64,000 bases of DNA from Zhongshania marina (GTDB lineage Bacteria > Pseudomonadota > Gammaproteobacteria > Pseudomonadales > Spongiibacteraceae): positions 1 to 64,000 of the forward strand of contig NZ_PQGG01000016.1 in the NCBI RefSeq assembly GCF_002915595.1, written 5' to 3'. The translations under genes were made by a program, and so were the position numbers. Below, piece by piece: positions 3,335 through 64,000 of the stretch (position 1 is its first letter; each line of letters opens with the position of its first letter). The notes under the pieces are model-generated. The model ran no database searches, had not been told where the DNA came from, and saw only the letters and a program-made list of their open reading frames with translations.

Positions 3335-4123
3335 ATGCGCCGTTTATTGTTTGTCCTTTGGTCTTCATTACGGCTCCCGCATTTTTTGGGGCCGCTTCTT
3401 GCGCTAACAATCCTTCCTAGCTTTGCAGCTGGTTTAGGCGTTTCTCCCACTTTACTTGAATTTTCTCCCGCCGAGGTGGCCAAGGGTTTGACCTTGCGCA
3501 ATACCGGCACTGCCACTTTGCGTGCGCAGGTGAGGGTGTTTGCCTGGGAGCAGCGGGATGGTAAAGATGTACTTGAGCCATCTACTGCGCTGCTAGCTAG
3601 TCCGCCATTTTTAACGATTGTGCCGGGTGCCAGTCAGATGGTGCGGGTTATTCAGCGCGGTGGTGCTGCGCCAGACGCGGCTAATGGTGAGCGCAGTTTT
3701 CGTATTTTAGTGGATGAATTGCCCGCTTCAGCGCGTGAAGATGTTCGGGCGAATACTCCCTCTGGTGCACAGCCGGGTCTTACTTTTTTATTACGTTTTT
3801 CTATTCCGGCTTTTATTGCCTCAGGCGTGAATGCCAGCGATGCCGAGCTTCATTGGCGTTTGCAAAACACCGAGACGGGTTTGCAATTAGTCACCGACAA
3901 TACCGGAAATAGTCGCGCCCAGATTAGCGATATGCAATTGATGAGCCGCGATGGCGAGGTGCTTTATGAGCATAAAGGCCTTGCCGGTTATGTGTTGTCT
4001 GGGAACGTGCGGCGTTGGTCTTTTGGTTTACCAAGCAGCGCGGCGGCCGCGACGGAAATAAGGATGCAGGTCAATGGTCAGCCCACTCGCTACCCTTTGG
4101 CGCCAGCTGACGTTACTGATTAG
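3335..4123 (+). CDS. Periplasmic pilus chaperone, CsuC-like
   Basis: This 262-residue protein has an N-terminal hydrophobic export signal (to about residue 32, ending SFAAG) and a PapD-like two-domain immunoglobulin fold. The N-terminal domain carries LRNTGTATLRAQVRVFAWEQ, the VPGASQMVRVIQR strand and the RSFRILVDELP segment characteristic of Csu-type chaperones. It would hold pilus subunits folded in the periplasm and deliver them to the usher by donor-strand complementation. The coding region starts 24 bp after the subunit gene and overlaps the usher gene by 50 bp, so expression is coupled. Confidence 0.88.
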   Translation: MRRLLFVLWSSLRLPHFLGPLLALTILPSFAAGLGVSPTLLEFSPAEVAKGLTLRNTGTATLRAQVRVFAWEQRDGKDVLEPSTALLASPPFLTIVPGASQMVRVIQRGGAAPDAANGERSFRILVDELPASAREDVRANTPSGAQPGLTFLLRFSIPAFIASGVNASDAELHWRLQNTETGLQLVTDNTGNSRAQISDMQLMSRDGEVLYEHKGLAGYVLSGNVRRWSFGLPSSAAAATEIRMQVNGQPTRYPLAPADVTD

Positions 4124-46796: not shown

Positions 46797-47831
46797 TTAA
46801 AGGAAGCAATCCGCCATGACTTCCATCGCTTCTGCTTGTGCGCAGTTAAGCAGCATAGAGTTTACTTCGCCACGCTTTGATGCGGCTTTCCAGTCGGCGG
46901 CGCGTTCACGTATGCGTGCTTCTGGTCCGACTAAGGCAATTTCATCTACCAATGCATCGGGTACTGCATTGCGAGCCTCGTCTTTTTTACCGGCTAAATA
47001 TAAGTCCTGAACCTGCTCTGCGGCGTCGCCGTAGCCCATACGCGAAGCATAGTCGGTATAAAAGTTTTTACCCTTAGCGCCCATGCCGCCAATATAAAGC
47101 GCAAGAAAGTCTTTGATGAAGTAGCGGCAGCCGTCGATATTGTCGTCCATGATTACGCCGACAAAGGGCGCAACGTCGAAGTCTGCTTTGCTGCGTCCAG
47201 ATTTTTCTAGGCCTTTGCTAATGCTGGGTTCAAGAACGGAGTATTTTTCTGGGCTCATCCATACTGGGAAGACACCGTCAGCAACTTCTGCAGAGGCAGA
47301 CACGCCCGCCGGTGTAATGGAGGCGGTGTAAATGGGGATGCTTGGGTCGCCATGCAAAATTGATTTTAAGGGTTTGCCAAGACCGGTTGCGCCGGGGCCT
47401 TTATAGGGCATTTGGTACATGCCGCCGTCAAACTCTACAGGGCCTTCGCGTTCAAAAATCTTTTTCATGATTTGAATATATTCGCGGGTACGTGTGACGG
47501 GCTTGCCATAGGGAACGCCGTGCCAGCCTTCGACCACCTGAGGGCCGGAGGCGCCGAGGCCAACGATAAAACGTCCGCCAGAGAGTTGATCTAAACTCAT
47601 GGCGGTCATTGCACACATCGCGGGGGTCCGCGCTGGCATTTGCATTATGGCGGTGCCGACTTTGATCGTGCTGGTTTGCGCCAATATCCAAGCTGCGGGA
47701 GTCACGGCGTCGGAGCCGTAAGCTTCGGCTGTCCACACTGAGTCGAAGCCTAGCGATTCAGCTTGTTTTACGGTGTCCATTGGCAGCGACAGTTTTGCGC
47801 CAGAGTAGCCGAGTAATAGTCCGAGTTTCAT
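46797..47831 (-). CDS. LLM-class (F420-dependent type) oxidoreductase
   Basis: This 344-residue luciferase-like TIM barrel has the LGLLLGYSG opening, WTAEAYGSDAVTPAAW, GTAIMQMPARTPAMCAM and GLGASGPQVVEGWHG. These are the pattern of F420-dependent LLM enzymes (MSMEG-type, methylenetetrahydromethanopterin-reductase-like). The gammaproteobacterial cofactor may instead be FMN. I chose the ATG at 47831, with GGGAG 8 nt upstream. A second LLM enzyme lies at 60358 but is not closely similar. The substrate is unknown. Confidence 0.85.
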   Translation of the reverse strand: MKLGLLLGYSGAKLSLPMDTVKQAESLGFDSVWTAEAYGSDAVTPAAWILAQTSTIKVGTAIMQMPARTPAMCAMTAMSLDQLSGGRFIVGLGASGPQVVEGWHGVPYGKPVTRTREYIQIMKKIFEREGPVEFDGGMYQMPYKGPGATGLGKPLKSILHGDPSIPIYTASITPAGVSASAEVADGVFPVWMSPEKYSVLEPSISKGLEKSGRSKADFDVAPFVGVIMDDNIDGCRYFIKDFLALYIGGMGAKGKNFYTDYASRMGYGDAAEQVQDLYLAGKKDEARNAVPDALVDEIALVGPEARIRERAADWKAASKRGEVNSMLLNCAQAEAMEVMADCFL

Positions 47832-47904
47832 ATGCGTCTCCCGCATTAGGTTTTATTTTAGTTAAGCTAGAGTTTCAAGATGACAGAATAGCTCATTTGC
47901 CGAC

Positions 47905-50849: not shown

Positions 50850-51178
50850 ATGTGGTCCCTATTTTGTTGCGGGTTTGGTGGTGTAATGGCGGCCAGTTTA
50901 CGCGGGGTGCTTTAATTTTTCTAATTTATACTTATTATTTCGAGTATTCACTTTGAAAATGTGGTTTGCGTCTTCGCCCCTAAGGATCTATATAGCTACA
51001 AAGACATTAGCTGCAGATGAATAGAAGTACTCGTTCGTCTTAGTATAGTCTTTAATTTCGGCCGCGTTATTCATATTGAAAATAACAGTGATAATATGGA
51101 TAAATTTGCAGAATTATCCTCAGCTGCTAGGATAGTCCCCTAATTATTGCCAAATTTCGATTTCAAAAAGGAGTGTTT
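50850..51178. promoter_or_regulatory. Divergent control region aceA/glcB
   Basis: This AT-rich 329 bp separates the two divergent glyoxylate-shunt genes. A plausible glcB promoter is TTGCAG (51106-51111), 16 bp, TAGGAT (51128-51133). I saw no clear operator for a known regulator. Confidence 0.5.
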
Positions 51179-53362
51179 ATGTCTTCGGCCATTTCCAGAG
51201 TACAGCACAGCGGACTTCAAATTGCCGATGTACTTTATCGTTTGGTCAATGATGAAGTCGCTCCTGGTACAGGCATTAGCCCTGACGATTTTTGGGCTGC
51301 ATTTGCAGACATATTAAAGGACTTAGCACCTAAAAATCGTGAATTGCTGCAAAAACGCGAAACTATTCAGGCGCAGATTGACGACTGGCACCGCGCTAAT
51401 GCGGGCAAGTTCGACGCGGTTGCCTACAAAGCGTTTCTGCAAGAAATAAACTATTTACTGCCAGAACCTGCAGATTTTAATGTCGCTACTGAAAATGTCG
51501 ACGAAGAAATTGCGGCCTTGGCAGGCCCGCAGTTGGTTGTACCGGTAATGAACGCGCGCTACGCACTTAACGCAGCTAATGCGCGTTGGGGCAGTTTGTA
51601 TGATGCGCTTTACGGCACCGATGTTATTTCCGAGGCCGATGGCGCTGACAAAGGCAAAGGCTACAACCCTGTTCGCGGTGCAAAGGTTATTGCTTATGCT
51701 CGTCAGTTCCTTGATCAACACACTAGCTTGAGCGATGGCAGTCATGCCGACGCGACCTTGTACAGCGTTGTTGATGGTGCATTGGCTGTAACTTTAGCGA
51801 ATGGCAGCGAAACGGGATTGGCAGACCCCTCGCAATTTGTGGGCTATTTGGGCGACGCTGCTGCGCCGACCAATATTTTACTGATCAATAATGGTCTGCA
51901 TATCGATATCCAAATTGATGATCAGCACCCTATTGGTAAAGACGATGCTGCCCGTGTTAAAGACGTGGTGTTGGAATCTGCGCTGACGACTATTCAAGAC
52001 TGTGAAGATTCGGTTGCTGCCGTAGACGCCGATGACAAAGTTGAGGTTTACCGCAATTGGTTGGGCCTCATGAAGGGCGATCTTCAAGAAGCCTTTGTAA
52101 AAGGCGGTAAAGAGCTAGTTCGCACACTCGCGGCTGACCGCGTATTCACTGCCGCTGGCGGTGGCGAAACAGTATTACACGGCCGCAGTTTATTGTTGGT
52201 GCGCAATGTTGGTCACTTGATGACAAACGGCGCAATCATCGACGCCGACGGTTTTGAGGTGCCAGAGGGCATCATGGATGCCATGGTGACCGTGCTTGCC
52301 GCCATGCACGATTTAAAGCAGACCGGTGCATTGCGCAATTCACGCGCGGGTAGCGTATATATTGTTAAACCCAAAATGCATGGCCCTGAAGAAGTGGCCT
52401 TTGCTGCGGAGCTGTTCTCGCGGGTTGAAGATGCGTTCGGTTTGGCACGCAATACCTTAAAAATTGGCATTATGGATGAAGAGCGCCGCACCACGGTGAA
52501 CTTGAAGGCCTGTATTGCGGCAGTACCTGAGCGAGTTATTTTTATTAACACCGGCTTCCTTGATCGCACTGGTGATGAGATCCACACCAGCATGGAAGCG
52601 GGTCCGTTTGTTCGCAAAGCCGATATGAAACAGCAGGCTTGGATCAAAGCCTATGAAGATTGGAACGTCGATATTGGTTTGACCTGTGGTTTAAGTGGTC
52701 ATGCGCAAATTGGTAAAGGGATGTGGGCCATGCCAGATGAAATGGCGGCAATGATGGATGCCAAAATTGGCCATCCGCAAGCTGGCGCTAACTGCGCATG
52801 GGTGCCTTCGCCAACGGCGGCAACCTTGCACGTAATGCATTACCACCAAGTCAATGTGTTGTCGGTACAAGAGCAATTGGCTAGCCGTCAGCGCGCTGCA
52901 CTGGATGATATTTTGACTATCCCTGTGGCACAAAATCCAAATTGGAGCGCAGAGGAAATTCAGCAAGAGTTGGATAACAACGCTCAGGGCATGTTGGGTT
53001 ATGTGGTGCGCTGGATTGATAACGGTGTAGGTTGTTCAAAAGTGCCAGACATTAACGATGTTGGTTTGATGGAAGACCGCGCGACACTGCGGATTTCAAG
53101 CCAGCACATCGCTAACTGGTTGCGTCATGGTGTTTGTACTGAGGCACAGGTGCTAGAAACCTTGAAGCGTATGGCGGCGGTGGTTGATCGCCAAAACGCG
53201 AGTGACGCTGACTACACGCCAATGGCCGATAATTTTGACGACAGCGTGGCCTTCCAAGCGGCGTTGGAATTAGTGCTTAAGGGTTGCGAACAGCCAAGCG
53301 GCTATACCGAGCCGGTGTTGCATAGCCGTCGTATTGAATACAAAGCCAAGCACGCGGGCTAA
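51179..53362 (+). CDS. glcB: Malate synthase G
   Basis: This 727-residue enzyme condenses glyoxylate with acetyl-CoA. It is the single-chain G type, with the [19 protein letters not shown] active-site segment, [16 protein letters not shown], the Glu/Asp metal residues in [15 protein letters not shown], and the Asp-based [16 protein letters not shown] chose ATG 51179, whose AAAGGAG lies 5 nt upstream; the GTG at 51173 lies inside that ribosome-binding site. It completes the glyoxylate shunt with aceA. Confidence 0.96.
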
Positions 53363-53410
53363 GTTTTAACAAAACCCGCGTCTTGTAACAGTTTCCTGTC
53401 AGTGAGGCTT

Positions 53411-53436
53411 GGCCCGGATTTTCCGGGCCTTTTTTA
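53411..53436 (+). terminator. Terminator of glcB
   Basis: GGCCCGGA (53411-53418) pairs with TCCGGGCC (53422-53429) around a short loop, followed by TTTTTT. Confidence 0.92.
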
Positions 53437-53508
53437 TATTGGCCATATAAAAACGGCGCGATCTTACCGTTGTTAAATGACGCCAAGCAGGCAAGGAATC
53501 ATTCCGAA

Positions 53509-54687
53509 TCAGCGTTCAATAAATCGTTTAATGTAATCGCCGAAGCGCTCGTTAATCATCGCTTCACTCAGACCAAATTCGTCGAGGGAGTATTCGTGTT
53601 TACCAAAGCGGTGTTGTTCATTATTGCTGTGCCAAGCTGCCATTGATTGATAGGCGGGCTCAGTTATTTTGCGTCCAGCGCGCTTGTAAACTCGTTCAAC
53701 AATACTCATGGGATTTTCTCGCACATCTCCGTAGCGGGCATCGACGATGCAGCGATCCAAGCCCAATTTGTCCCGAGAGGCGAGATAGCGATCCATTGCC
53801 ATACCCCAGTAGCGCATAACTTCGCGGCCAATCTCATGTTTATCGACAGGTGCCGATCGTAGTGTCCACATCGCGCTGACAAATTTAGCCCACGAGGGAA
53901 TGGTTTGCAGTGGGTCGCGATGGGTGTGCAAAATTGTGGCCTTGGGGAAGTTGGCAAGCAGCGATTCCATATGGGCGATATAACCCACACCTTTCATCAC
54001 CCATGGCCGATCTTTTCTGCCGCCGTCCTGCCATTGCAGGTATTGCACCAGTGATTTCATGTAGGCAAATGGTACAGCGCTGGAGCGGGCCATAACCCAG
54101 TCTAAATAGCTGGGAGAGAATACCATTTGATTCCAAATCCAGTCGTCAAAGGTAAACATGCCCAGTAGCCAGTCTTCGTCTACTTCTTGCTCTTCCATAT
54201 GATGGGCAGCGTGAACTGCAGAGTTGTCTGTTGCTACCAAATTGGCACTGCCCGCTTGAGCAATGCGCGGATCTGGCTGACCGGGGATTGCGTCGGGAAA
54301 GGGGGCGGGATTCCATAAGCGCCAGAACGCCATTTTTTGCACATTGTTCGGTGCCGACAGAATTTTTTGCATTTTAGTCGTGCCGGAGCGACCTAGGCCT
54401 AAAACAATGATGGGATCATCAACCTGCTCTTGCAGAATGTCTGGGTGGGCACTCAGGTCTTGTTGAAATCGCAGGCGATTGACTAGGCAGCGCACAAAAT
54501 CTGCTTGAATACTTTCAAGCCCCTCTTGGTGTAGCGTGATATGCAAAGGGATGCATTTCAGCAAAACTTTCATGGGCTCGATAAAGCCCATATCGCCAAA
54601 GCTACGTAGACCGCTGATTTCGATTGCTTGATTTATCAACGCGTCGGGGTCGAGAGCGGCGGAAATATCAGATTGGGAAAGCGTCAT
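53509..54687 (-). CDS. Sulfotransferase-family P-loop protein (paralogue 1)
   Basis: This 392-residue protein has the 5'-phosphosulfate-binding loop GLGRSGTTKMQ at about 99-109 and HTHRDP as the 3'-phosphate region. An N-terminal helical extension (1-95) includes the GLRSFGDMGF block also found in the second copy at 56901. The two share WRL.NPAPFP and the end pattern EYSLDEFGLSEAMINERFGDYI, so they are diverged paralogues of the Sulfotransfer_3 type. The acceptor is unknown. It lies 21 bp after the reductase gene and is co-transcribed with it. Confidence 0.8.
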   Translation of the reverse strand: MTLSQSDISAALDPDALINQAIEISGLRSFGDMGFIEPMKVLLKCIPLHITLHQEGLESIQADFVRCLVNRLRFQQDLSAHPDILQEQVDDPIIVLGLGRSGTTKMQKILSAPNNVQKMAFWRLWNPAPFPDAIPGQPDPRIAQAGSANLVATDNSAVHAAHHMEEQEVDEDWLLGMFTFDDWIWNQMVFSPSYLDWVMARSSAVPFAYMKSLVQYLQWQDGGRKDRPWVMKGVGYIAHMESLLANFPKATILHTHRDPLQTIPSWAKFVSAMWTLRSAPVDKHEIGREVMRYWGMAMDRYLASRDKLGLDRCIVDARYGDVRENPMSIVERVYKRAGRKITEPAYQSMAAWHSNNEQHRFGKHEYSLDEFGLSEAMINERFGDYIKRFIER

Positions 54688-54708
54688 TATTGTATACCTA
54701 TTCTTGAT

Positions 54709-55728
54709 TTAATTTAGCGCGCTGGAGCGTAGTGGATGATAAGTCCAGATTTCGCGGATGCCAGGTTCTGCTGTCAGTACATCAGGAGCGCGATTAAATA
54801 AGCTGCTGGCAGACGCCATATGCGAAGCCTCCCGCACTATCCGCACCTCCATGCTGGGTTTGCCTTTCACTTTCCAGATTAATTGTTCTACTTCATCGGG
54901 TTTAAAGTCCCTGTATTCGAAGCAATTGTGAAGAGTGATTCCCTCTTGGGTAGAAATATCTACATGCATTCTGGTGCCTACCACATGGCCGGCGGGTATG
55001 GTTTCATTAAGCCAGTGGCTTTGGTGGTCTTCATCCCAAATGATGGGTTCAACCTTTTCTTTTACGTCGATGACATCAAGCCCAAGGGCATCTGCTACGC
55101 AAAGCGGTGGGATGATGGCGATGCCACCTAGGCCACCGTTTCCGGCCACGCTTTTTTCTTCAAACTCTTGTACCGTCAAACCGGCGCCGCAAAATCGAAG
55201 TAAATGCACGCCTTGGCGAGCGATGTCGGTAAACGAGGTGTGGGTCATAGATTCGATTTCTGTATTTGGCCCTACCGATAGAATGCCGGCCCAAATACGC
55301 GTCATATCCCATATGCCGCTGCCAGTAAAAGTAACACCGTGCTTGAGGGCTAGCGATTGGATTCGTTCTGCAATAGCAGGATTTAGGCGGCGCGGATTGC
55401 AGGATTCTGCACCGTGACAAAGGATGTTTGCACCCGCTGACATTAGGCGTTCGTAGGAGGGAAAGTTTTCTTCTAGGCGATCAGAGACCGCAACAAAGGC
55501 TAAGTCCGCATTTAGTTGTGAGTAATCAGCTGTCTCGCAATCTTCTACCAAAAGACCAATAGGCTCCCTGCCAATGAGTGTGCCGAGATCCCGGCCGACC
55601 TTGTCGCCGGCGCGATTGTAAGCGCCGACAATTTCCCAGCCTTTGTCTAAGGCGAAGCCAGCAAGTTGCTGACCGACAAAGCCGAGACCATATACTGCAA
55701 TGCGCGGCGAGATGTTTGAAGTTTTCAT
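54709..55728 (-). CDS. NAD(P)-binding reductase, dihydrodipicolinate-reductase/DAPDH-like
   Basis: This 339-residue protein has an N-terminal Rossmann motif (AVYGLGFVGQQLAGFAL, residues 12-28). Its C-terminal half has EVRIVREASHMASASSLFNRAPDV, as in proteins related to 2,4-diaminopentanoate dehydrogenase. Such proteins are oxidoreductases of uncertain substrate. It starts the minus-strand unit with the sulfotransferase-like gene and is divergent from the TetR gene 62 bp away, which suggests that regulator controls it. Confidence 0.75.
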   Translation of the reverse strand: MKTSNISPRIAVYGLGFVGQQLAGFALDKGWEIVGAYNRAGDKVGRDLGTLIGREPIGLLVEDCETADYSQLNADLAFVAVSDRLEENFPSYERLMSAGANILCHGAESCNPRRLNPAIAERIQSLALKHGVTFTGSGIWDMTRIWAGILSVGPNTEIESMTHTSFTDIARQGVHLLRFCGAGLTVQEFEEKSVAGNGGLGGIAIIPPLCVADALGLDVIDVKEKVEPIIWDEDHQSHWLNETIPAGHVVGTRMHVDISTQEGITLHNCFEYRDFKPDEVEQLIWKVKGKPSMEVRIVREASHMASASSLFNRAPDVLTAEPGIREIWTYHPLRSSALN

Positions 55729-55790
55729 GTTAGTATTTCCAGTCCTGTTAATGGGTTTTAAATTTCCTGACTCTGGTGTTGACTAATAAA

Positions 55791-56438
55791 ATGGAAAAAG
55801 ACACGTATCAGCTTATTCGCCCCAATGACGCAATGCGTCGCCAGCCGAAACAAGATCGATCTATCAAGGTCGTTAACGCCATTGTCGAGGCAGCGCATAG
55901 CATTTTGTTAGAACACGGTCGTGGCGCTTTATCTACAACAACGCTGGAAGTGGTTTCGGGTGTGCCAAAATCGTCCATTTATCAATATTTTCCTAATCTA
56001 GATACCATCGTTTTCGAGGTGTATCGCTTAGTCATACGCAAGCAGCATTTAAAGGGCTATCAAGAGTTTCCGCGGGATAAAATCCACACCGTACTATCAT
56101 TTATTTATTGGTTGCTGGACTGGTCTATAGAAATTCACCGTAAAGTACTGGAGGTAGATAAAACCCTACTCGTGGAGCACAAAGGCTTTTGGGATGCCTG
56201 GCAGGAGCTAGATGCAAATATTGCCCCTGAAAGTTCCACAGAGTCCTTTATATATGAACAGTTAAAATCGTGCTCCGACTTTAAGCCTTCCAGTAACGAT
56301 ATGCTGCGTGTTCATGCTCTCGGTCGCGCAGTCCAGCTCATGGTTTATTCTTTAATTAGCGATAATATTGATTTTATTGACGATCCGGAGTTTCGTAACA
56401 CCTTGGCTAAAATGTGTTATGCAATATTTGCAGATTAG
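55791..56438 (+). CDS. TetR-family transcriptional regulator
   Basis: This 215-residue regulator has a basic N terminus (RQPKQDRSIKVVNAIVEAAH), a TetR helix-turn-helix (ALSTTTLEVVSGVPKSSIYQYFPNLDTI, about 45-72) and a helical ligand domain. It probably represses the divergent reductase/sulfotransferase unit and perhaps the plus-strand cluster. I chose ATG 55791, as no good ribosome-binding site supports the longer GTG/TTG starts. Confidence 0.85.
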   Translation: MEKDTYQLIRPNDAMRRQPKQDRSIKVVNAIVEAAHSILLEHGRGALSTTTLEVVSGVPKSSIYQYFPNLDTIVFEVYRLVIRKQHLKGYQEFPRDKIHTVLSFIYWLLDWSIEIHRKVLEVDKTLLVEHKGFWDAWQELDANIAPESSTESFIYEQLKSCSDFKPSSNDMLRVHALGRAVQLMVYSLISDNIDFIDDPEFRNTLAKMCYAIFAD

Positions 56439-56900
56439 CCTTAAGTGCGTCATATAAAATTTATTATCTTAAATAATTTAAAAATAACTTACCTAAATTT
56501 GTAAATGAAAGCCACATATTGTGGGTTGCTCGCACGCTGCGATTGCTTGAAAGCGCCCTAAAATTTGCGCTTAAATCAAAATGACTGCCGGCTATATAAA
56601 TAAAGTCATTATTATTCAATGGCTTGCGGTGGTTATTTGCATTCTTAAAAGCTGACCTGCATTTCCTTGTTCCGCTCTCCTTGACGTTGCTATATTGGTT
56701 CTCGAAATAAAAATAACTCGGGCTTCGTTAGGTCGTCACTTATATTTTTTTAAAAATTATAAATAGTTTTAGAATTTGTACTTCTATTTGTATTCATAAT
56801 TTTTTGCTTAATTGTGTTTCGGTATTGGCTAGCTCGAGGTTTTGTCGCGAAACTCGGATGAGTTTTAACTAAATTATCAATAATAACTTAAGGTGATGTA
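56439..56900. other. AT-rich intergenic region
   Basis: These 462 bp are markedly A/T-rich. A TTGACG (56681-56686) is present, but no good -10 stands at 17 bp. No hairpin terminator after the TetR gene and no other feature can be supported. Confidence 0.5.
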
Positions 56901-58094
56901 ATGACGAATCAAGCAGTAAGTGCCGAAGCTCCGGCTATGCCAGAGCCAATCCCATTTTATGTTGAAGATATGTTGGCTGCAGCTAAGAATGCCACTGGTC
57001 TTTCTGATTTTGGCGATATGGGCTTTACCACGGGATTGGAAATTTTATGTAATTCCCTTCGGAACGAAGCAAACCTCCATGAAGGTGGTGTGATAGGACA
57101 AGGGCAAGAACTACTGCGTTTGCTAGTTAATCGTCTGCGTTATATCGAGGATGTAAAGCGGCACCCCGAAATACGTGAAGAAAAAATTGTCGCGCCGATA
57201 GTGGTAGTGGGGTTGCCTAGAACAGGTACGTCTAAACTCCAGCGTGTAATGTCGGGCGATCCGGATGTTCAGCGCCTAGAGGTGTGGCGGCTTTTAAATC
57301 CCGCGCCATTCCCTGGTGAGGAGCCCGGCAACCCTGCGGAGCGTATTGAATTTGGCAAAATAGTAGAAGATACATTCCGAACGCAATTTCCGGGTTGGAT
57401 GGCGCGTCATCCAATGGAAGCGCAAGAACCAGATGAAGAGCTTTTCATTATGGAAATGTCTTTTGAGTCTGCGGTGTCTGCCATGTTGGCTAGAGCGCCT
57501 ACCTTTAGAGAGTTTTCGGTGAAATGTGATCCGCGCCCGACTTATAAAATATTGTTCGAAATGATGCAGTATTTGCAGTGGCAAGACGGCGGTGAAAAAG
57601 GGCGTCCATGGATCATGAAGTCGCCAGTTCACGTTGGATATTTAGATATTCTTTTTGAATTCTTTCCTGATGCAACAGTGGTTCATTGCCATCGTGATCC
57701 TGTTAAAACAGTACCTTCGTTCGCGACAACTATTCACGAACTTCGTAAAACCACTACCAATGATATTGATCCAGCCGAAGTTGGGCAGGAGTGGTTCGAG
57801 TACTGGGCATCATTGACTGATCGTTATTTAGAAGTGCGTGATAGCTTGCCGCTGGATCGTATTGTGAATGCGCATTTCTCCGAAATTTGTGACGACCCAG
57901 TCGCCGTCATTAAGCGAATTTATGCTAAGGCGGGGCGTGAAATGACGCCGCAGGCAATTGAAGGTTGTAAAAATTACAATGAAAGCCGCCCTGCTCATCA
58001 TTGGGGTGCATACAGTTACACGCTAGAGGAATATGGCCTAAGCGAAGCTGCAATTAAGGCACGATTCGCTGAATACCTGAAAATTTTTGGTTAA
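56901..58094 (+). CDS. Sulfotransferase-family P-loop protein (paralogue 2)
   Basis: This 397-residue protein has the 5'-phosphosulfate loop GLPRTGTSKLQ at about 106-116, HCHRDPVKTVPSF in the middle, and the C-terminal YSYTLEEYGLSEAAIKARFAEYL. It is a paralogue of the protein at 53509, from which it differs throughout. It heads the plus-strand cluster with DUF1214-like, SDR, LLM and kinase genes. A role in sulfating or otherwise modifying a lipid or steroid-like substrate is possible; it is not shown by the sequence. Confidence 0.8.
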   Translation: MTNQAVSAEAPAMPEPIPFYVEDMLAAAKNATGLSDFGDMGFTTGLEILCNSLRNEANLHEGGVIGQGQELLRLLVNRLRYIEDVKRHPEIREEKIVAPIVVVGLPRTGTSKLQRVMSGDPDVQRLEVWRLLNPAPFPGEEPGNPAERIEFGKIVEDTFRTQFPGWMARHPMEAQEPDEELFIMEMSFESAVSAMLARAPTFREFSVKCDPRPTYKILFEMMQYLQWQDGGEKGRPWIMKSPVHVGYLDILFEFFPDATVVHCHRDPVKTVPSFATTIHELRKTTTNDIDPAEVGQEWFEYWASLTDRYLEVRDSLPLDRIVNAHFSEICDDPVAVIKRIYAKAGREMTPQAIEGCKNYNESRPAHHWGAYSYTLEEYGLSEAAIKARFAEYLKIFG

Positions 58095-58105
58095 CAACAA
58101 AGCTC

Positions 58106-58142
58106 GCTCTGATTGATCAAATACCTGTTGCTTGATCAGAGC
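58106..58142. repeat. Imperfect inverted repeat after the sulfotransferase gene
   Basis: GCTCTGA (58106-58112) pairs with TCAGAGC (58136-58142), continuing with TCAA/TTGA and a 4-nt bulge. No T run follows, so it is more likely a processing or stabilising hairpin than a terminator. Confidence 0.4.
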
Positions 58143-58172
58143 AAATCTATATTTAGTTTGGAGTTGTCAAAA

Positions 58173-59369
58173 ATGATCAGTTACCAGCTAGAAAGCTGGG
58201 GCGATAGCTCGCCCCTTAGTACGGAATCGCCGGCCGTGTGGGATGCCTTTAGTGCGGCCATCAACCAGCTGCAGGGTATTGTTTGGAATGATCCGCGCAT
58301 TTCGGACGAGATGACGAGAGCGGAAGGTGTACGTTATCTAACGCGCCTTATCGCCGGCGCGATCCCTATGACAATGGAGTCGTGGAATCCGGAGTTCCCC
58401 AGCTTCTTCACCTTTTTATCATCACGTATTCAATATGGGCTTCCGGCGGCAGATGCGCTTTACCAATGGGCACCAATACATGGTGACTATGTGTACCGTA
58501 TCAAAGGACGTCGTGGTACGGCACATATGATGGATATTGAAACTCGCCAAGGGCATTTTGCGCATATTGGTGGTTGGGCCTTATTTGATCGCTGTAGTGA
58601 ATTTGAGTGCGACGCCGATGGCAATATTGAAATAGTGCTTAGCAAAAATGAGCAGCCTGGCAATTGGGTAAAAATTCCCGATGGGCTTGGTGATCTTATT
58701 TTCCGTCAGTATTTTTATGATTGGGTGAATGAAGAGCCTGCGCAGCTGCAGATTAGCCGAGATGGAGCCCGTTACCCAGCGCCGATAGTTAGTCCACATT
58801 TAATTGCTCAGCGCACTCGTTTGCTTATTGACTGGTTGCATAATTTACCCGCATTTTTTGCTGAGCAAGTGCAGAGCTACTATCAAGATGCAATAAATAC
58901 AGTTCGAATTGACGAGGTATCTATTGGCTGGGCGGAGCTGCGCTATGGTAAAGCTAATTACGAATGTGAGCTTGATGAGGCTCTAATTATTGAGGTCGTA
59001 CCGCCAGAAGCTAAGTACTGGAGCATTCAATTGTATAGTCAGTTCTGGGATGCTCGGGATTGGAATCTCCGCCAAACCTCTATCAACGGATTTCAGGCGG
59101 TGCTCGGAGAAGATGGCGTGTTCCGCGCTGTAATTTCCCACGAGGACCCTGGAGTAATTAACTGGCTAGATGCTGCAAATCATCGAACCGGCCTGTTATC
59201 ACTGCGCTATTTCCGTGCGAAAACGGCGCCGCTACCGACAATTAGACGGGTTAAATTGTCCGAACTGCCTTCAATAATTAATGACCGGAAACTGCTCATC
59301 ACTTCAGATCAACGAAGTGAGTTGTTGCGGCGACGAGCTGAGTCTGTCGTAAGGCGAAATTGCCTGTAA
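58173..59369 (+). CDS. DUF1214-like protein
   Basis: This 398-residue cytosolic protein has a C-terminal block matching the DUF1214 pattern: YWSIQLYSQFWDARDW, GVFRAVISHEDPGVINWLDA and GLLSLRYFRA. An N-terminal region (1-110) gives no family I recognise. DUF1214 proteins have no assigned activity and often accompany catabolic operons in Actinobacteria and marine Proteobacteria. I chose ATG 58173, with GGAG 10 nt upstream; the frame runs back to 58113. Confidence 0.7.
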   Translation: MISYQLESWGDSSPLSTESPAVWDAFSAAINQLQGIVWNDPRISDEMTRAEGVRYLTRLIAGAIPMTMESWNPEFPSFFTFLSSRIQYGLPAADALYQWAPIHGDYVYRIKGRRGTAHMMDIETRQGHFAHIGGWALFDRCSEFECDADGNIEIVLSKNEQPGNWVKIPDGLGDLIFRQYFYDWVNEEPAQLQISRDGARYPAPIVSPHLIAQRTRLLIDWLHNLPAFFAEQVQSYYQDAINTVRIDEVSIGWAELRYGKANYECELDEALIIEVVPPEAKYWSIQLYSQFWDARDWNLRQTSINGFQAVLGEDGVFRAVISHEDPGVINWLDAANHRTGLLSLRYFRAKTAPLPTIRRVKLSELPSIINDRKLLITSDQRSELLRRRAESVVRRNCL

Positions 59370-59427
59370 TTCAAAATGTTTAATAGAAAAATATTAAATT
59401 TCAAATAACAACCAAAGGAATAGTGCT

Positions 59428-60204
59428 ATGTCTTATTTAGAAAATATGTTCTCAAACAAAGGTCGCGTCGCGCTGGTTACTGGTTCTGGTACCGGTATGG
59501 GAGTCAGCTTTGCAAAGGCGTTGGCCAAATCTGGGGCAACGGTTATCTGTGCAGCGCGACGTTTAGATAAAGTTGAGCAGGTCGCAAGTGAAATTAATGC
59601 GGCGGGTGGTAAAGCGGTCGCCTATGCCTTAGATATTGGCAACACAGAAAGCGTTAAGAATGTTTTTGATCAAGCATATGAAGCTTTTGGCGTGGTCGAT
59701 ATTTTAGTCAACAACGCCGGTCAAATTCAGTTTAAGCCCTTTCCAGATGTTGAGGATGAAGAGTGGGAAAATTTGCTCAATGTGAATTTAACAGGAACTA
59801 TGCGCATGGCGCGTGAGTTTTCTAAGCGCCTGATTCCCTTAGACGTGCCCGGCAGTATTGTTAATGTTACGTCTATCACCGGCGTTCAAACTCTGAAGAA
59901 TGTACCGTGTTACGGCAGCGTAAAGGCAGCATTGAACCAACTTACCAAGCAGATTGCGGCGGACATGTTCGAAACCAAAATTCGTTGCAATGCTATCGCG
60001 CCAGGCTATTTCATGACAGAAATGGTGGATTGGTATTTTGAAACGGAACAAGGGCAGGCCGAGGTTGCACGGCTGCCATCTAAGCGCATCGGCAATGTAG
60101 AGGAGTTGGAAGGCACCTTATTGCTATTGAGTAGTCAGGCTTCTAGCTTTGTTAATGGTGCGGTGATTCCCGTCGATTACGGTCACAATATTTTACTTGC
60201 CTAG
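59428..60204 (+). CDS. Short-chain dehydrogenase/reductase
   Basis: This 258-residue classical SDR has TGSGTGMG (about 18-25) as the NAD(P) loop, NNAGQIQF, the catalytic Ser in NVTSITG (about 149), and Tyr162/Lys166 in CYGSVKAAL. It oxidises or reduces a hydroxyl or ketone on an unknown substrate. AAAGGAAT precedes the ATG. It lies in the plus-strand cluster and is followed by a perfect inverted repeat. Confidence 0.92.
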   Translation: MSYLENMFSNKGRVALVTGSGTGMGVSFAKALAKSGATVICAARRLDKVEQVASEINAAGGKAVAYALDIGNTESVKNVFDQAYEAFGVVDILVNNAGQIQFKPFPDVEDEEWENLLNVNLTGTMRMAREFSKRLIPLDVPGSIVNVTSITGVQTLKNVPCYGSVKAALNQLTKQIAADMFETKIRCNAIAPGYFMTEMVDWYFETEQGQAEVARLPSKRIGNVEELEGTLLLLSSQASSFVNGAVIPVDYGHNILLA

Positions 60205-60227
60205 TGGGCTTGCTTCTTAATTTCAAT

Positions 60228-60265
60228 CTCGTCTATTATTGATAAATAAATCAATAATAGACGAG
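60228..60265. repeat. Perfect 16-bp inverted repeat
   Basis: CTCGTCTATTATTGAT (60228-60243) and ATCAATAATAGACGAG (60250-60265) are fully complementary around AAATAA. No T run follows on either strand, so it is not a typical terminator. It lies between the SDR and the LLM genes. Confidence 0.85.
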
Positions 60266-60357
60266 AAGAAGGCGGCTCATCATCCTTCTCAATTTTTCTG
60301 AAAATTCAGTGCAGCAACCAATCGCAATTTATAAAAATTATATTCGCAGGAGGTGTT

Positions 60358-61419
60358 ATGGAAAAATTAAGTCCCCTAGACGAGTTGGGTGTTTATTTGT
60401 TGGGTGGTCGAATCAAAGACCCTGCCCGAGCGATGGACGAGGCGGTTGAGGCAGAGCGTATAGGCTTAACCAGTGCGTGGATTGCTGAGCGTTTCGACAT
60501 GAAGGAGTTGGGAGTCCACGCCGGCGCAATCGCTGCCCGCACCGAGACAATTAAATTTGGAATGGGGTCTGTTGCTATAGGTACCCGCACGCCGGCGGTG
60601 ACCGCCGCAATGGGTGCAACCTTTCAACAAATTTTTGGCGATCGATTGTTGCTTGGTTTGGCCCGAGGGTTATGGGGTATTAATGAAAAGGGCGGCATGC
60701 TTCGGCCAACCATGCGCGGCTTTGGTGATTACGCTCAAATTCTCCTCGATTTGTGGGCAGGTAAGACTGTTAATTATGAGGGTGATTTAGGCAAATTTAG
60801 TAATTTGCGAATGCCTGATCCGCCGACTGCGCCACGTCCGCCAATCATTTTCTCGAGCTGGGTGCTGGGCCCAATGGGTATAGATTTGAGCGCTCGCTTA
60901 TTTGATGGCGTGTTTATTGGTTGCGAATTAACGGTAGAGGCAACAGCCGAAATTTGTAAAAAATTGCGTGAAGCTTGCGAGCGCCACGACAGGGATCCGG
61001 CGTCCCTTAAAATTTATAATACGATGTTGTGTGCGCCGGAAATGACGCCAGAAGAAGAACATCTGGTAATGAATGCTCGTATGATTACTCACTTCTCATT
61101 CCCCGGGGTTTCTGAGCAGTTATTAAAGGCAAATGGCTGGGATCGATCTGCGATGGAGGCGATTATGTCGCATCCTAAAATGCAGGGAGATGCGATTGCC
61201 GATCAAGCCTTTACGCGGCAGGAACTCGTAGACATTGGTCATATGATTCCTCGTGAGTGGGTTGAAACTGGTTGTGTTGTTGGCTCGGCAGAACACTGCG
61301 CCAAACGCTTGCAAGACTATGTTGACGCCGGTTTGGATCACTTAGTCTTGCACGGCGCTTCACCGGCGCAATTGGCGTCGACCACTGCTGCATTTCGTGC
61401 GCAAAAGGCGGCGCGGTAA
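60358..61419 (+). CDS. LLM-class flavin or F420-dependent oxidoreductase
   Basis: This 353-residue luciferase-like barrel opens LDELGVYLLGGRIKDPARAM, with AWIAERFDMKELGVHAGAIAARTE, FGMGSVAIGTRTPAVTAAM and LLGLARGLWGINEKGG. It belongs to the TIGR03857-like F420 LLM group as far as I can judge. A strong GCAGGAGG lies upstream of the ATG. The stop shares one base with the phosphotransferase start, so they are coupled. The cofactor could be FMN in this organism. Confidence 0.83.
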   Translation: MEKLSPLDELGVYLLGGRIKDPARAMDEAVEAERIGLTSAWIAERFDMKELGVHAGAIAARTETIKFGMGSVAIGTRTPAVTAAMGATFQQIFGDRLLLGLARGLWGINEKGGMLRPTMRGFGDYAQILLDLWAGKTVNYEGDLGKFSNLRMPDPPTAPRPPIIFSSWVLGPMGIDLSARLFDGVFIGCELTVEATAEICKKLREACERHDRDPASLKIYNTMLCAPEMTPEEEHLVMNARMITHFSFPGVSEQLLKANGWDRSAMEAIMSHPKMQGDAIADQAFTRQELVDIGHMIPREWVETGCVVGSAEHCAKRLQDYVDAGLDHLVLHGASPAQLASTTAAFRAQKAAR

Positions 61420-62567
61420 TGGCCGCCCTGATAGAGCCGAGTTTGGCAGCGGCGCTTGATAGAAAAATGGCACTGCGCGGTAAAGTGGAATATACACCTT
61501 CTGACGTGTCACTTATTGCTGAGCAGTTAAATCGATTTTTAACTGCTCAGATAGGCCAGGGCTTTGAAGTTCGCGATTTAAACGCCCTGAGCGGCGGAGC
61601 CTCTATGGAGCAATACGTTTTCGACTTGTATCGCCCCAATGCCGATCGTCAATTGGTGAAAATGATTTTGCGCATGAGTCCGCTGTGTTCTGTGATCGAA
61701 ACCTGCCGCTTGCGCGAGTTCCAGATTATTCGGGCGGTTGCTGGCGTGCTTCCAGTGCCTGAGGCGTTTTGGGTAAGCGACAGTGATGAATATTTTGGTC
61801 GACCAGCGCTGATCTGTTCCTTCAATCCTGGCGTTGCCTCGCCTAAAGACGGCGGTGGCAAAGCGACGGGCTTGGGTACGGTGTATGGTAAGCATCGCGA
61901 AAAATTGGCGCCGCAATATATTCGACACCTTGCCGCCTTACATACCATGGATTGGCGCGATAAGGATCTGTCTGCTTTAGTTATTCCCCGCGAGGGCACG
62001 AGCGATGCAGTAGATTGGAGTCTGGCGCATTGGGACAGGGTCTGGGACGAGGACGCTGTTGAAGCGCACCCTACGATTGCTCTTGCGCGGGCATGGCTGT
62101 GGCGCAATCGCCCCGTGGTTGATCATATCTCTTTAGTGCATGGGGATTATCGGAACGGCAATTTTCTATTCGATGAAAATACGGATGAAATAACCGCGAT
62201 CTTAGATTGGGAGGCGGGCTATCTGGGTGACCGGCATATGGATTTGGCTTACGCCATGCTTCCTGGCTATGGCACGCTTGAGGGTGGCACTTATTACTGT
62301 GCAGGCTTAGTCGAGAAAAATGCCTTTATTGAGGAGTACACGCGGCTCTCCGGCTTATCCGTAGATCCCGAGCGTTTGCGTTATTACACCGTGCTGAATA
62401 TGTATTGGGCGATTATCGCCTGTTGCGCTACAGGCCCTAAATTAGCGGCTGATCGAATGACTCACCTAGATACCATGATGAACATTGTGCCGGGTCTTGG
62501 CTTTTATTTTGTCAATGAATTGAATGCAATTCTTTTAGAGGAGCAGCAGCATGACGCCGACGGTTAA
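61419..62567 (+). CDS. Aminoglycoside-phosphotransferase-like (APH) kinase
   Basis: This 382-residue protein-kinase-fold enzyme has the Brenner-like catalytic loop LVHGDYRNGNFLFDE (His about 241, Asp 243) and the metal motif ILDWEAGYLGD about 25 residues later. It belongs to the APH/ACAD10-like group linked to acyl-CoA dehydrogenases, which phosphorylates hydroxyacyl-CoA or other hydroxyl compounds, rather than to drug-resistance enzymes. It overlaps the next gene by 17 bp. Confidence 0.82.
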   Translation: MAALIEPSLAAALDRKMALRGKVEYTPSDVSLIAEQLNRFLTAQIGQGFEVRDLNALSGGASMEQYVFDLYRPNADRQLVKMILRMSPLCSVIETCRLREFQIIRAVAGVLPVPEAFWVSDSDEYFGRPALICSFNPGVASPKDGGGKATGLGTVYGKHREKLAPQYIRHLAALHTMDWRDKDLSALVIPREGTSDAVDWSLAHWDRVWDEDAVEAHPTIALARAWLWRNRPVVDHISLVHGDYRNGNFLFDENTDEITAILDWEAGYLGDRHMDLAYAMLPGYGTLEGGTYYCAGLVEKNAFIEEYTRLSGLSVDPERLRYYTVLNMYWAIIACCATGPKLAADRMTHLDTMMNIVPGLGFYFVNELNAILLEEQQHDADG

Positions 62568-63033
62568 TCAGCAACTCGCATCGATGAAAGCCTCGTTGGA
62601 GCGTTCTGTTATTCCAGCACTACCGGCAGAGGCGCGCTTTGCCCAAGAACAGGCGGGCATGATTGCTGCCACGCTGGCATGGCTTATTGATGTGCAGGAG
62701 TTTGAGTTACGTTATGAGCGGCAAGAGGCAGCGGACTACTATCAATTACTAGCTGATTTGGCTGAGATTGACGGTGTTGAAATTGCGGGCGAATTACTGA
62801 GTACCCCACTCTTGAGTGCAGACAATAGCTTGGCCGAAATACGTAAGCAAAGTCGCGAGCTCAAGCAAGCGGCAATCGCCGCAGCGATCAAGCTGGATGG
62901 ACGAGCTGATGCAAAGCTGCTGGCAGTTGCCCAGCGTCAAAGTGAAAGAGAGCAGGCGTGGTTTAGAATGACCGGTTTTACAAGTTCGCCGGCGCCTGGC
63001 GGTATCGCAGATGTTATTGGTGCGCGGGCCTAG
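62551..63033 (+). CDS. Unrecognised small helical partner of the APH-like kinase
   Basis: This 160-residue, largely helical protein has no signal peptide. It resembles small partner proteins that follow APH/ACAD10-like kinases in other gene clusters, but I cannot name the family. Its start lies inside the kinase gene (17-bp overlap), so they are translationally coupled. It might be a regulatory or second subunit. Confidence 0.65.
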   Translation: MTPTVNQQLASMKASLERSVIPALPAEARFAQEQAGMIAATLAWLIDVQEFELRYERQEAADYYQLLADLAEIDGVEIAGELLSTPLLSADNSLAEIRKQSRELKQAAIAAAIKLDGRADAKLLAVAQRQSEREQAWFRMTGFTSSPAPGGIADVIGARA

Positions 63034-63273
63034 TGCGAATCGCTGAAATTCAAATGCGGTGGAGATCTTTCGAGAAGTGGGCTCAATATTGCGCGCCGCT
63101 TCTTACGGTCATCAAATAAATGCGTAAATATCTGATTTTCTGAGAATTCCCTCACACTTCACCACCTTCCTAGCTTTATGGATGGGGTGTTTCTTTGGCG
63201 CATATCTAGTATCCATAAGCCAAAGCGCCCATAATCACACCGTATTATATAAAAATGCGGAGCCATTACTTCC

Positions 63274-64000
63274 ATGAATCTGTCGCGTATAGACCTTAAC
63301 CTTCTTGTTTACCTAGACGTTCTGCTGCGGGAGAAAAATGTAACCCGTGCCGCGGAGCAATTGGGTATTACCCAGCCGGCCTTGAGTAATGGCTTGCGGC
63401 GGCTGCGAGATTTGTTTAATGACCCGCTGTTGGTCAGAACCAGTGAAGGTATGACGCCGACCGAGCGCGCGCTTGAATTGCAACCGCAGGTGCGTACGAT
63501 ATTGTCCTCGGTGGAGCAGGCGGTGCTGCCGGTGTCTGATTTTGAGGTGACAAATAGCACCCGCGTGTTTCGAATTATGGCGAGTGACTATGCAGAGTCG
63601 ACGTTGTTGGCGCCGCTATTATTCAAGCTTAGGGACGAGGCGCCCAATATCACCCTTGATGTTCTTACGCCCAGTGACGTTACCTTCCAAGATTTGGAGC
63701 AAGGTAAAATTGATATGGCGATCAACCGCTTTGATCGCCTGCCGCAGTCTTTTCATCAAGCCACAGTGTGGCGGGACAGCTTTTCTTGTTTGATGAGCAG
63801 CGAAAACAAGGCCCTAGAAAATTTTGATATGGATGCATTCCTCGCGGCTCCCCATATTTGGGTAAGTAAAACGGGTATGGGGGTTGGTCGAGGCATGAGT
63901 CAGCGCGATAGCCAGCGCTTGGGTTGGGTCGATGAGGCTCTGGCGGAGTGCGGACACGAGCGCCAAATCCGCGTGTTTACCCGTCATTATCAAGTGGCGG
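63274..64000 (+). CDS. LysR-family regulator, 3' end outside the window
   Basis: The N-terminal 242 codons are in the window. The wHTH (DLNLLVYLDVLLREKNVTRA then AEQLGITQPALSNGLRRLRDLF, about 7-50) is followed by a ligand-binding domain (FRIMASDYAESTLLAPLL). The pattern is that of LysR regulators of aromatic or steroid-like catabolism (NodD/NahR/PcpR type opening LSRIDLNLL). It may control the cluster upstream on the same strand. Truncated by the window edge. Confidence 0.88.
   Translation, partial: MNLSRIDLNLLVYLDVLLREKNVTRAAEQLGITQPALSNGLRRLRDLFNDPLLVRTSEGMTPTERALELQPQVRTILSSVEQAVLPVSDFEVTNSTRVFRIMASDYAESTLLAPLLFKLRDEAPNITLDVLTPSDVTFQDLEQGKIDMAINRFDRLPQSFHQATVWRDSFSCLMSSENKALENFDMDAFLAAPHIWVSKTGMGVGRGMSQRDSQRLGWVDEALAECGHERQIRVFTRHYQVA

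What the first reader, a model, noticed from the sequence alone, without database searches (positions are those of the whole stretch)
53509..63033. Uncharacterised catabolic or tailoring cluster with two sulfotransferase-fold paralogues
Two diverged paralogues lie on opposite sides of a TetR gene. The other genes are an NAD(P) reductase, DUF1214-like, SDR, LLM oxidoreductase, APH-like kinase and a small coupled partner, with a LysR gene at the end. The kinds of enzymes (LLM, SDR, ACAD10-like kinase, sulfotransferase fold) recall lipid or steroid degradation clusters of Actinobacteria. I know of no described pathway with this set.
Basis: inference. Interest (0 to 1): 0.6.

Follow-up and report, generated by a model that had tools for sequence, protein, structure and literature searches.

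The report
Sulfotransferase–DUF1214 module in Zhongshania
A marine bacterium carries a small, repeatedly duplicated set of genes that probably puts sulfate groups onto a lipid-like alcohol, and a protein family of unknown function (DUF1214) turns out to be a near-constant gene neighbour of the sulfate-adding enzyme in related bacteria, which points to a job for that family.

Summary
(1) A core, TetR–ST_B–DUF1214–SDR with divergent RED (often ST_A), is one block in 8 of 21 family genomes, at different sites; six paralogous ST–DUF1214–SDR trios were also seen. (2) LLM–APH–small is optional: it lies beyond a strong hairpin, is in 2 of 8 core loci and is missing in a sister genome. (3) LysR belongs to the flank. 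Both sulfotransferases keep the PAPS-contact residues; ST_A-type proteins have Tyr where the others have His244. Main result: DUF1214 genes like this one have a sulfotransferase gene within 1.5 kb in 29/30 family loci, 19/22 further order loci and 4/8 further class loci, against 2/32 control loci (both also DUF1214 clusters). Sulfate-activation genes lie close by in several lineages. Best reading: a PAPS-dependent sulfation module for a hydrophobic alcohol, with DUF1214 as the partner that handles the sulfate ester. Substrate and direction are unknown; a tie to steroid ring degradation is not supported.

The parts
53509..54687 (-). ST_A: Sulfotransfer_3 protein, accessory arm; PAPS-contact residues kept, Tyr in place of His244 of ST_B
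   Evidence: Pfam 102 bits; next to RED in 5 of 8 core loci; residues
54709..55728 (-). RED: NAD(P) reductase with DAP_DH_C domain, related to native amine dehydrogenases
   Evidence: Pfam 38.5 bits; PDB 6iaq 100 bits, 6iau 86 bits; divergent from TetR in 8 of 8 core loci, broken by an insertion in one
55791..56438 (+). TetR-type regulator, divergent from RED (62 bp gap); the longest ORF starts at GTG 55776
   Evidence: TetR_N 21.2 bits, below cut-off 24; conserved in 8 of 8 core loci, 63-96% in the seven others
56652..56671 (+). Conserved 20-base element about 230 bp upstream of ST_B; candidate regulatory site
   Evidence: 0-2 mismatches in seven core loci; 5 in L044, no better by itself than the background hits, though it aligns in place
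56901..58094 (+). ST_B: PAPS-type sulfotransferase of the core trio
   Evidence: Pfam 122 bits; best PDB matches 2zq5 and 2z6v; PAPS-contact residues invariant in 27 of 27 aligned
58173..59369 (+). DUF1214 protein, partner of ST_B, likely enzyme acting on or handling the sulfated product (inferred)
   Evidence: Pfam 42 bits; PDB 6ans 152 bits; linked to sulfotransferase genes; polar invariants in 25 of 25
59428..60204 (+). Classical SDR oxidoreductase of the core trio
   Evidence: Pfam 188 bits; S149, Y162, K166 invariant in 11 of 11; third gene in 14 of 14 Zhongshania trios read
60227..60266 (+). 17-bp perfect inverted repeat after SDR; probable end of the core transcription unit, or an operator
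   Evidence: Fold -35.8 kcal/mol, z -8.6; hairpins after SDR in 7 of 7 core loci folded (of 8), z -3.1 or lower in 6 and -1.9 in one. No T-run, so the terminator scan did not list it
60358..61419 (+). LLM oxidoreductase, TIGR03857, probably F420-dependent; optional second unit
   Evidence: NCBIfam 333.5 bits, cut-off 218.4; F420 genes in the genome; present in 2 of 8 core loci
61419..62567 (+). APH-like small-molecule kinase of the optional unit
   Evidence: Pfam 77 bits; overlaps LLM by 1 base; LLM+APH pairs also at L105, L106, L107, L111 and on two plasmids, L060 and L072
62551..63033 (+). 160-aa protein of no known family, 17-base overlap with APH; optional unit
   Evidence: No Pfam or NCBIfam family at E 0.001; among the 8 core loci only here and in G016
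63274..64000 (+). LysR regulator (continues to 64224); part of the flanking chromosome, not of the module
   Evidence: Stays with FKBP and later flank genes in 5 of 8 loci; absent in the three where the core lies elsewhere

Best explanation
The core is a PAPS-dependent sulfation module under its own TetR regulator. The SDR interconverts a ketone and an alcohol on a hydrophobic substrate. ST_B moves sulfate from PAPS to that alcohol. DUF1214 binds or converts the resulting sulfate ester. RED and the variant sulfotransferase ST_A form an accessory arm. Shown here: conserved co-inheritance of the block, intact PAPS-contact residues, strong DUF1214–sulfotransferase linkage, sulfate-activation genes near the same pair in several lineages, and APS kinase in the genome. 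Inferred: the alcohol acceptor, the order of steps, that DUF1214 acts on the sulfate ester, and repression by TetR. LLM–APH–small is a separate F420-type oxidoreductase/kinase unit that some strains place beside the core. Substrate, and whether the purpose is catabolic or biosynthetic, are not known.
For: Block conserved in 8 of 21 family genomes and at different chromosomal sites. Six paralogous ST–DUF1214–SDR trios, one (L049) with RED- and ST_A-like genes as well. Pairwise distances of ST, DUF1214 and SDR over 14 trios correlate at r 0.93-0.97. ST within 1.5 kb of DUF1214 in 29 of 30 family loci and 4 of 8 class loci and 19 of 22 order loci, against 2 of 32 control loci, both of which lie in LLM–ST–DUF1214 clusters. 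PAPS-contact residues invariant in 27 of 27. APS kinase and ATP sulfurylase just past the DUF1214–ST pair, one opposite LysR gene between, in 8 of 21 genomes. CysD/CysNC beside another pair. Paraburkholderia DUF1214–ST–VOC–CysQ–CysD–CysN. Tsukamurella DUF1214–SDR–ST with CysD and CysC one regulator gene away. An alkylsulfatase gene near the L049 cluster.
Against: No substrate or activity is known for any of these proteins. In 13 of 21 genomes a DUF1214–ST pair was not shown beside APS kinase; in the window's own genome APS kinase is on another contig (G002 has the genes beside broken and masked copies). Linkage weakens with distance from the query: 4 of 8 class loci, and 3 of 10 inspected plasmid loci (of 28 hits) have an annotated sulfotransferase within 8 kb, in incompletely annotated records. 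The SDR is less fixed: an SDR match lies in 8 of the 22 order loci. The loci counted are best matches, many from close relatives, and the profile was built from 27 sulfotransferases that include several of the family loci. The distance correlation has no control gene. ST_A lacks the histidine kept by all others, so it may not be a sulfotransferase in function. Gene neighbourhood is not proof of a shared pathway.
Confidence: 0.66

Rival explanations
1. Sulfation as activation: ST_B sulfates a hydroxyl, DUF1214 eliminates the sulfate to give an alkene, and SDR/RED carry on, so that the module removes hydroxyl groups. This would be a stand-alone relative of the sulfate chemistry of olefin synthase.
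For: ST_B matches a sulfotransferase region inside Planktothrix proteins annotated as type I polyketide synthase at 31% over 94% (217 bits), better than the Tsukamurella sulfotransferase (142 bits). Sulfation before hydrolysis, decarboxylation and desulfation in olefin synthase is described in PMC3903477 (passages read). DUF1214 has many polar invariant residues. Reductases are in the cluster.
Against: No DUF1214 activity is known; the predicted model was too poor to use. I did not check that the Planktothrix protein is an olefin synthase. No thioesterase is in the core.
Confidence: 0.2
2. Steroid or sterol catabolic cluster: the trio acts in breakdown of a sterol ring or side chain.
For: [quoted passage not shown] The window genome has a KshA_C protein (243 bits) and HsaA/HsaC-like genes (365 and 279 bits, both below the 450 cut-offs) on another contig. 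Novosphingobium pNL2 has SDR–DUF1214–dioxygenase near FadD3 and CysQ.
Against: No Ksh, Hsa, FadD3 or acyl-CoA genes in the core. Two core genomes lack a strong HsaC/BphC-like match and all 13 coreless genomes have it. That Rv3531c is a DUF1214 protein is recalled, not tested.
Confidence: 0.2
3. Biosynthesis: the module makes a sulfated lipid for the envelope or for export.
For: Sulfotransferases put sulfate on bacterial metabolites, and M. tuberculosis has four (PMC3141025 passages). APS kinase and ATP sulfurylase genes near the pair suggest demand for PAPS.
Against: No exporter, acyltransferase or glycosyltransferase in the core. The common DUF1214–ST pair is near an acyl-CoA dehydrogenase and, at L054, a thioesterase, and an alkylsulfatase lies by one paralogue cluster.
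Confidence: 0.2
4. All nine genes from ST_A to the small protein form one regulated pathway unit.
For: In the window and in G016 they lie together. LLM genes also adjoin DUF1214–ST at L150, L151 and L152 and lie near DUF1214 on two plasmids, L060 and L072. The hairpin after the SDR has no T-run here.
Against: Strong hairpin after the SDR in the window and in most other core loci. LLM–APH–small in only 2 of 8 core loci, missing in G006 although G006 and G016 are sisters.
Confidence: 0.15

Closest known systems
Mycobacterial Stf1 (Rv3529c) gene set Rv3529c–Rv3530c–Rv3531c
   Same: Sulfotransferase beside an oxidoreductase and a third protein. The Tsukamurella set is DUF1214–SDR–ST, its ST close to PDB 2zq5 (573.6 bits), and ST_B matches 2zq5 at 123 bits. 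Stf1 = Rv3529c is stated in a passage of PMC8882603.
   Different: ST_B and the Tsukamurella ST are only 28.6% identical. Gene order differs (ST first here). TetR, RED and ST_A are added. 2zq5 as Stf1 and Rv3531c as DUF1214 are recalled, not tested.
Olefin synthase / curacin sulfotransferase domains
   Same: ST_B matches a region of cyanobacterial PKS proteins at 31%; sulfate is put on a lipid hydroxyl in the olefin synthase pathway (PMC3903477 passages).
   Different: Free-standing protein here; no PKS, carrier protein or thioesterase in the core. The matched PKS was not identified as an olefin synthase.
Native amine dehydrogenases / 2,4-diaminopentanoate dehydrogenase (RED)
   Same: Near full-length match to 6iaq, 6iau and 7xdu; DAP_DH_C domain.
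   Different: 104 bits against the equivalog cut-off of 400. The Glu-Glu pair of the three solved relatives shown is Ala-Glu (5) or Ser-Glu (2) in 7 RED proteins aligned.
ACAD10/11 and LvaA kinases (APH gene)
   Same: APH-fold small-molecule kinase; distant PDB matches include ACAD11. Phosphorylation of 4-hydroxyacyl-CoA by that group is described in PMC12440821 and PMC11342911 (start of abstracts; passages of the first).
   Different: No acyl-CoA dehydrogenase in the unit; the small partner has no known family.

Membership tests
PAPS-dependent sulfotransferase superfamily (ST_B) | 5'-phosphosulfate loop residues (GLxRxGT; motif recalled) | tested here: met
   R107 and G109 invariant in 27 of 27 aligned
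PAPS-dependent sulfotransferase superfamily (ST_B) | 3'-phosphate-binding Arg and Ser (motif recalled) | tested here: met
   R265 and S273 invariant in 27 of 27
PAPS-dependent sulfotransferase superfamily (ST_A) | His in the K-x3-H motif of the family as aligned here (catalytic role recalled) | tested here: not met
   Tyr in 5 of 5 ST_A-type proteins, His in 22 of 22 others
PAPS-dependent sulfotransferase superfamily | PAPS supply in the genome (APS kinase) | tested here: met
   apsK above cut-off in 21 of 21 family genomes
PAPS-dependent sulfotransferase superfamily | Sulfate transfer activity | not testable with these tools
   needs enzyme assay
Mycobacterial Stf1-type gene trio | ST, SDR and DUF1214 side by side | tested here: met
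   Tsukamurella L062 and 14 of 14 Zhongshania trios read; M. tuberculosis itself not read
Mycobacterial Stf1-type gene trio | Orthology of ST_B to Stf1 rather than to other Sulfotransfer_3 groups | tested here: inconclusive
   123 bits to 2zq5 and 122 bits to 2z6v, hardly different
Steroid catabolic cluster | Ring-cleavage or side-chain genes in the cluster | tested here: not met
   none among the nine proteins scanned from 53509-63033
Steroid catabolic cluster | Core occurs only with steroid ring-cleavage genes | tested here: not met
   G017 and G018 have the core, but their best HsaC/BphC-type matches are 94 and 81 bits against 267-337 in the other 19 genomes; the model used is that of BphC and no genome passed its cut-off
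TIGR03857 F420-dependent LLM family (LLM gene) | Score above curated cut-off | tested here: met
   333.5 against 218.4 bits
TIGR03857 F420-dependent LLM family (LLM gene) | F420 biosynthesis in the genome | tested here: met
   CofC, CofD, CofE, NpdG and CofH models above cut-offs on contig C14; CofG not tested by its own model
2,4-diaminopentanoate dehydrogenase (RED) | Score above equivalog cut-off | tested here: not met
   104.2 against 400 bits

The most novel reading that the evidence does not exclude
DUF1214 proteins are sulfate-ester lyases that work with a partner sulfotransferase: the pair is a general bacterial means of removing hydroxyl groups from lipids by sulfation and elimination, found in marine Gammaproteobacteria, Burkholderiales and Actinobacteria, including the unexplained Stf1 gene set of mycobacteria.
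Probability: 0.18. Interest if true: 0.87.

Novelty: new variant of a known kind. Interest (0 to 1): 0.57.

Why it matters
DUF1214 is a family of unknown function. The held paper library has one paper that uses the word, seen on a search listing and on an unrelated topic, and none that holds it together with sulfotransferase. The linkage found here gives the family a testable role in PAPS-dependent sulfation. It would do the same for the Stf1 region of mycobacteria, if the recalled make-up of that region is right, and for a module that Zhongshania has duplicated and moved several times.

Tried and rejected
Structure prediction of DUF1214 from the window and two 92% orthologues (the loci allowed for it) gave mean pLDDT 42.3 and was not used; no fold search was run on it. 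A single operon of all genes was judged unlikely on the hairpins and the patchy LLM–APH–small unit. A tie to steroid ring cleavage was tested by co-occurrence and not supported. A promoter in the TetR–ST_B gap was sought; promoter-like and terminator-like patterns in 53300-64000 were fewer than in shuffles (8 against a mean of 15.4, 10 against 13.1), so none is claimed. The small protein had only a chance-level Pfam match (E 0.037). A paper search for Zhongshania with "steroid degradation" found none. Two cholesterol papers searched for the trio's names gave no occurrence (PMC7593942 and PMC3068626, find only). The Embleya plasmid hit has no annotation, and my simple ORF caller did not pick out its DUF1214 gene, so it was not used. 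In other plasmid loci my ORF caller also missed genes; there I relied on the record's own annotation. At L123 the ORF caller hid the DUF1214 gene behind an opposite frame; its place comes.


Full report
What is there. The window comes from a Zhongshania genome: the two named loci found for the DUF1214 gene are Zhongshania aliphaticivorans BC9_2A and a Zhongshania MAG, both 92% identical; the family name Spongiibacteraceae is recalled. Between malate synthase G (51173-53362, named from recall) and a LysR gene (63274-64224) lie ST_A, RED, TetR, ST_B, DUF1214, SDR, LLM, APH and a 160-aa protein. Gaps are 21, 62, 462, 78, 58, 153, -1, -17 and 240 bases in that order up to LysR, counted with starts at 55791 and 58173.

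What travels together. Of 21 family genomes searched, 8 hold a DUF1214 orthologue of at least 62% identity. In all 8, TetR–ST_B–DUF1214–SDR are contiguous with RED divergent from TetR; in G004 RED is split by two ORFs that look like transposase genes. ST_A is next to RED in 5 of 8. LLM–APH–small is in 2 of 8 (the window and G016). LysR is in 5 of 8, always with the FKBP-type gene and its followers, and is missing in the three loci where the core lies elsewhere, so LysR belongs to the chromosome flank. G006 and G016 are sisters in the gene trees, yet G006 has SDR followed directly by LysR, so the LLM–APH–small unit was lost there or gained twice; a blastn comparison of that gap found no piece of the LLM–APH–small genes longer than 15 bases. 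G016 is 84% complete with 7% contamination.

Transcription units. After the SDR stop there is a hairpin in all 7 core loci folded (of 8): window -35.8 kcal/mol, z -8.6; five others z -3.2 to -5.1; L043 only -1.9. I read this as the end of the core transcript, so LLM–APH–small is a separate unit. The window hairpin has no T-run and was not listed by the terminator scan, so an operator role is not excluded. The TetR–ST_B gap holds a 20-base element with 0 to 2 mismatches in seven core loci; L044 has 5 mismatches, the level of the background hits, but aligns in place.

Paralogous trios. Six more loci in four genomes (two in G015, two in G018, one each in G016 and G017) have ST–DUF1214–SDR in the same order, at 43-57% identity for ST and 45-56% for DUF1214. 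At L049 (G018) RED-like and ST_A-like genes follow directly, giving all five enzymes in one row. The two regulators examined there, at L045 and L049, are AraC-type. Pairwise distances of ST, DUF1214 and SDR over the 14 trios correlate at r = 0.95, 0.97 and 0.93; no control gene was measured. I read this as a module duplicated and moved as a whole.

DUF1214 and sulfotransferase. A more distant DUF1214 match of about 30% identity is in 15 of the 18 genus genomes, next to an ST wherever I read the neighbourhood intact. Scanning the returned loci with a profile of 27 sulfotransferases (some from the family loci themselves), an ST lies within the 1.5 kb flanks of DUF1214 in 29 of 30 family loci (miss: L035) and 4 of 8 further class loci, and in 19 of 22 order loci outside the family (misses L129, L141, L142). 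Of 32 control loci from other searches (15 LLM, 12 HsaC-like, 5 CofD) 2 hold an ST, and both lie in clusters of LLM–ST–280-aa gene–DUF1214. An SDR match lies in 8 of the 22 order loci, so the SDR is a looser companion. The DUF1214 protein has a match at E 1e-20 in 79 of 390 order genomes but in 6 of 369 over the class. The loci are the best matches, many from close relatives, and the linkage falls with distance.

Sulfate activation. APS kinase is in all 21 family genomes. In 8 of them (G004, G007, G011, G012, G013, G014, G019, G020) it lies just past the DUF1214–ST pair, behind one LysR gene on the other strand, with an ATP sulfurylase next to it (Pfam on the G013 copies). G002 has the two genes beside broken and partly masked copies. 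In a genome of another family of the order (G503), CysD and CysNC genes lie beside the pair. On a Paraburkholderia plasmid the order is DUF1214–ST–VOC–CysQ–CysD–CysN, and on a Tsukamurella plasmid CysD and CysC lie one regulator gene away from DUF1214–SDR–ST. Two Novosphingobium plasmids have CysQ two genes before SDR–DUF1214. Of 10 plasmid loci inspected (of 28 hits), 3 have an annotated sulfotransferase within 8 kb and 4 have CysQ, CysC, CysD or CysN; one was unannotated. In one not inspected, Novosphingobium sp. KACC 22771, the coordinates put an ST match next to the DUF1214 match. CysQ removes PAP, the by-product of sulfotransferases (PMC3141025 passages). One paralogue cluster has an alkylsulfatase gene nearby (L049).

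The proteins. In 27 aligned sulfotransferases the PAPS-contact residues R107, G109, R265 and S273 are invariant, as are H170, E179, K240 and H264; their roles are recalled. Five of five ST_A-type proteins have Tyr where 22 of 22 others have His244. So both window proteins should bind PAPS, but ST_A may differ in chemistry. ST_B is closest in the PDB to 2zq5 and 2z6v (123 and 122 bits; recalled to be mycobacterial Stf1 and a second mycobacterial sulfotransferase). DUF1214 matches 6ans (152 bits), deposited as an uncharacterized protein. Twenty-five aligned DUF1214 proteins share P80, D98, Y101, Y112, R182, N309, P330, N334, W335 and R349 (numbered from codon 58161), enough polar invariants for an enzyme. 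The SDR keeps S149, Y162 and K166 in 11 of 11. RED resembles native amine dehydrogenases but fails the equivalog cut-off, and has Ala or Ser in place of the first Glu of the Glu-Glu pair in the three solved relatives shown.

LLM and F420. LLM is a TIGR03857 member. On contig C14 the genome has CofH (508.7 bits, in an 871-aa frame that suggests FbiC), CofC, CofD, CofE and NpdG genes above cut-offs, so F420 dependence is plausible. TIGR03857 is above cut-off in 9 of 21 family genomes. LLM is followed by an APH-type kinase at 4 of the 7 other such loci (L105, L106, L107, L111), and on Croceicoccus and N. resinovorum plasmids near DUF1214. Other LLM genes adjoin DUF1214–ST at L150, L151 and L152. 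So LLM is a recurrent but not fixed companion.

Steroids. The same contig C14 holds a KshA_C protein (243 bits) and HsaA/HsaC-like genes below their cut-offs, so this strain may degrade steroids. With the BphC model TIGR03213, which no genome passed, 19 of 21 genomes score 267-337 bits, and only G017 and G018, both with the core, fall to 94 and 81 bits; all 13 coreless genomes are among the 19. The core is therefore not tied to steroid ring cleavage in this genus. In M. [quoted passage not shown] PMC8882603 names Rv3529c as Stf1 (passage). Whether Rv3531c is a DUF1214 protein is recalled and was not tested.

Mechanism. The best-supported explanation is a PAPS-dependent sulfation module acting on a hydrophobic alcohol with DUF1214 as the partner of the sulfotransferase. 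The boldest reading not excluded is that DUF1214 eliminates sulfate, so that the pair removes hydroxyl groups; ST_B resembles a region of cyanobacterial PKS proteins (31%), and olefin synthase uses such chemistry (PMC3903477 passages). No activity has been shown.

Novelty. Searches of the held open-access library for DUF1214 alone (1 paper, unrelated) and for DUF1214 with sulfotransferase (none) found nothing on this pairing; subscription papers were not searched. The enzymes are known kinds; the near-fixed pairing of an unknown family with sulfotransferases and sulfate activation is, as far as I could see, not described.

Noticed in passing
G000 contig C14, 59063-72077 (L103:1402-12077): An F420 gene cluster (FbiC-like frame, CofC, CofD, CofE, NpdG) lies in a gammaproteobacterium a few kb from KshA_C and HsaA/HsaC-like steroid genes.
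   Followed up: partly
L041:13440-17116 (G004): RED is split by two transposase-like ORFs (IS21-type by look, no family search) in one genome while the rest of the core is intact.
   Followed up: no
L150, L151, L152: Other clusters join an LLM gene, a sulfotransferase and DUF1214. L150 also has a xylose-isomerase-like TIM barrel by Pfam, and L151 a 280-aa gene in the same place that was not scanned; a possible sister pathway.
   Followed up: partly
L049:13077-16133 (G018): A further sulfotransferase and an alkylsulfatase gene stand side by side near the five-gene paralogue cluster.
   Followed up: no
L037, L053-L055, L120-L126: The genus-wide DUF1214–ST pair sits near an acyl-CoA dehydrogenase and a protein that looks like an RNA methyltransferase (not scanned), with a thioesterase at L054 by Pfam: a second conserved neighbourhood worth a study.
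   Followed up: partly
window 46797-47846: A second LLM oxidoreductase gene lies near isocitrate lyase, outside the cluster.
   Followed up: no
window 3335-7471: A chaperone, usher and secreted coat-type protein set by look of the ORFs (family names recalled; ORFs listed, no family search).
   Followed up: no
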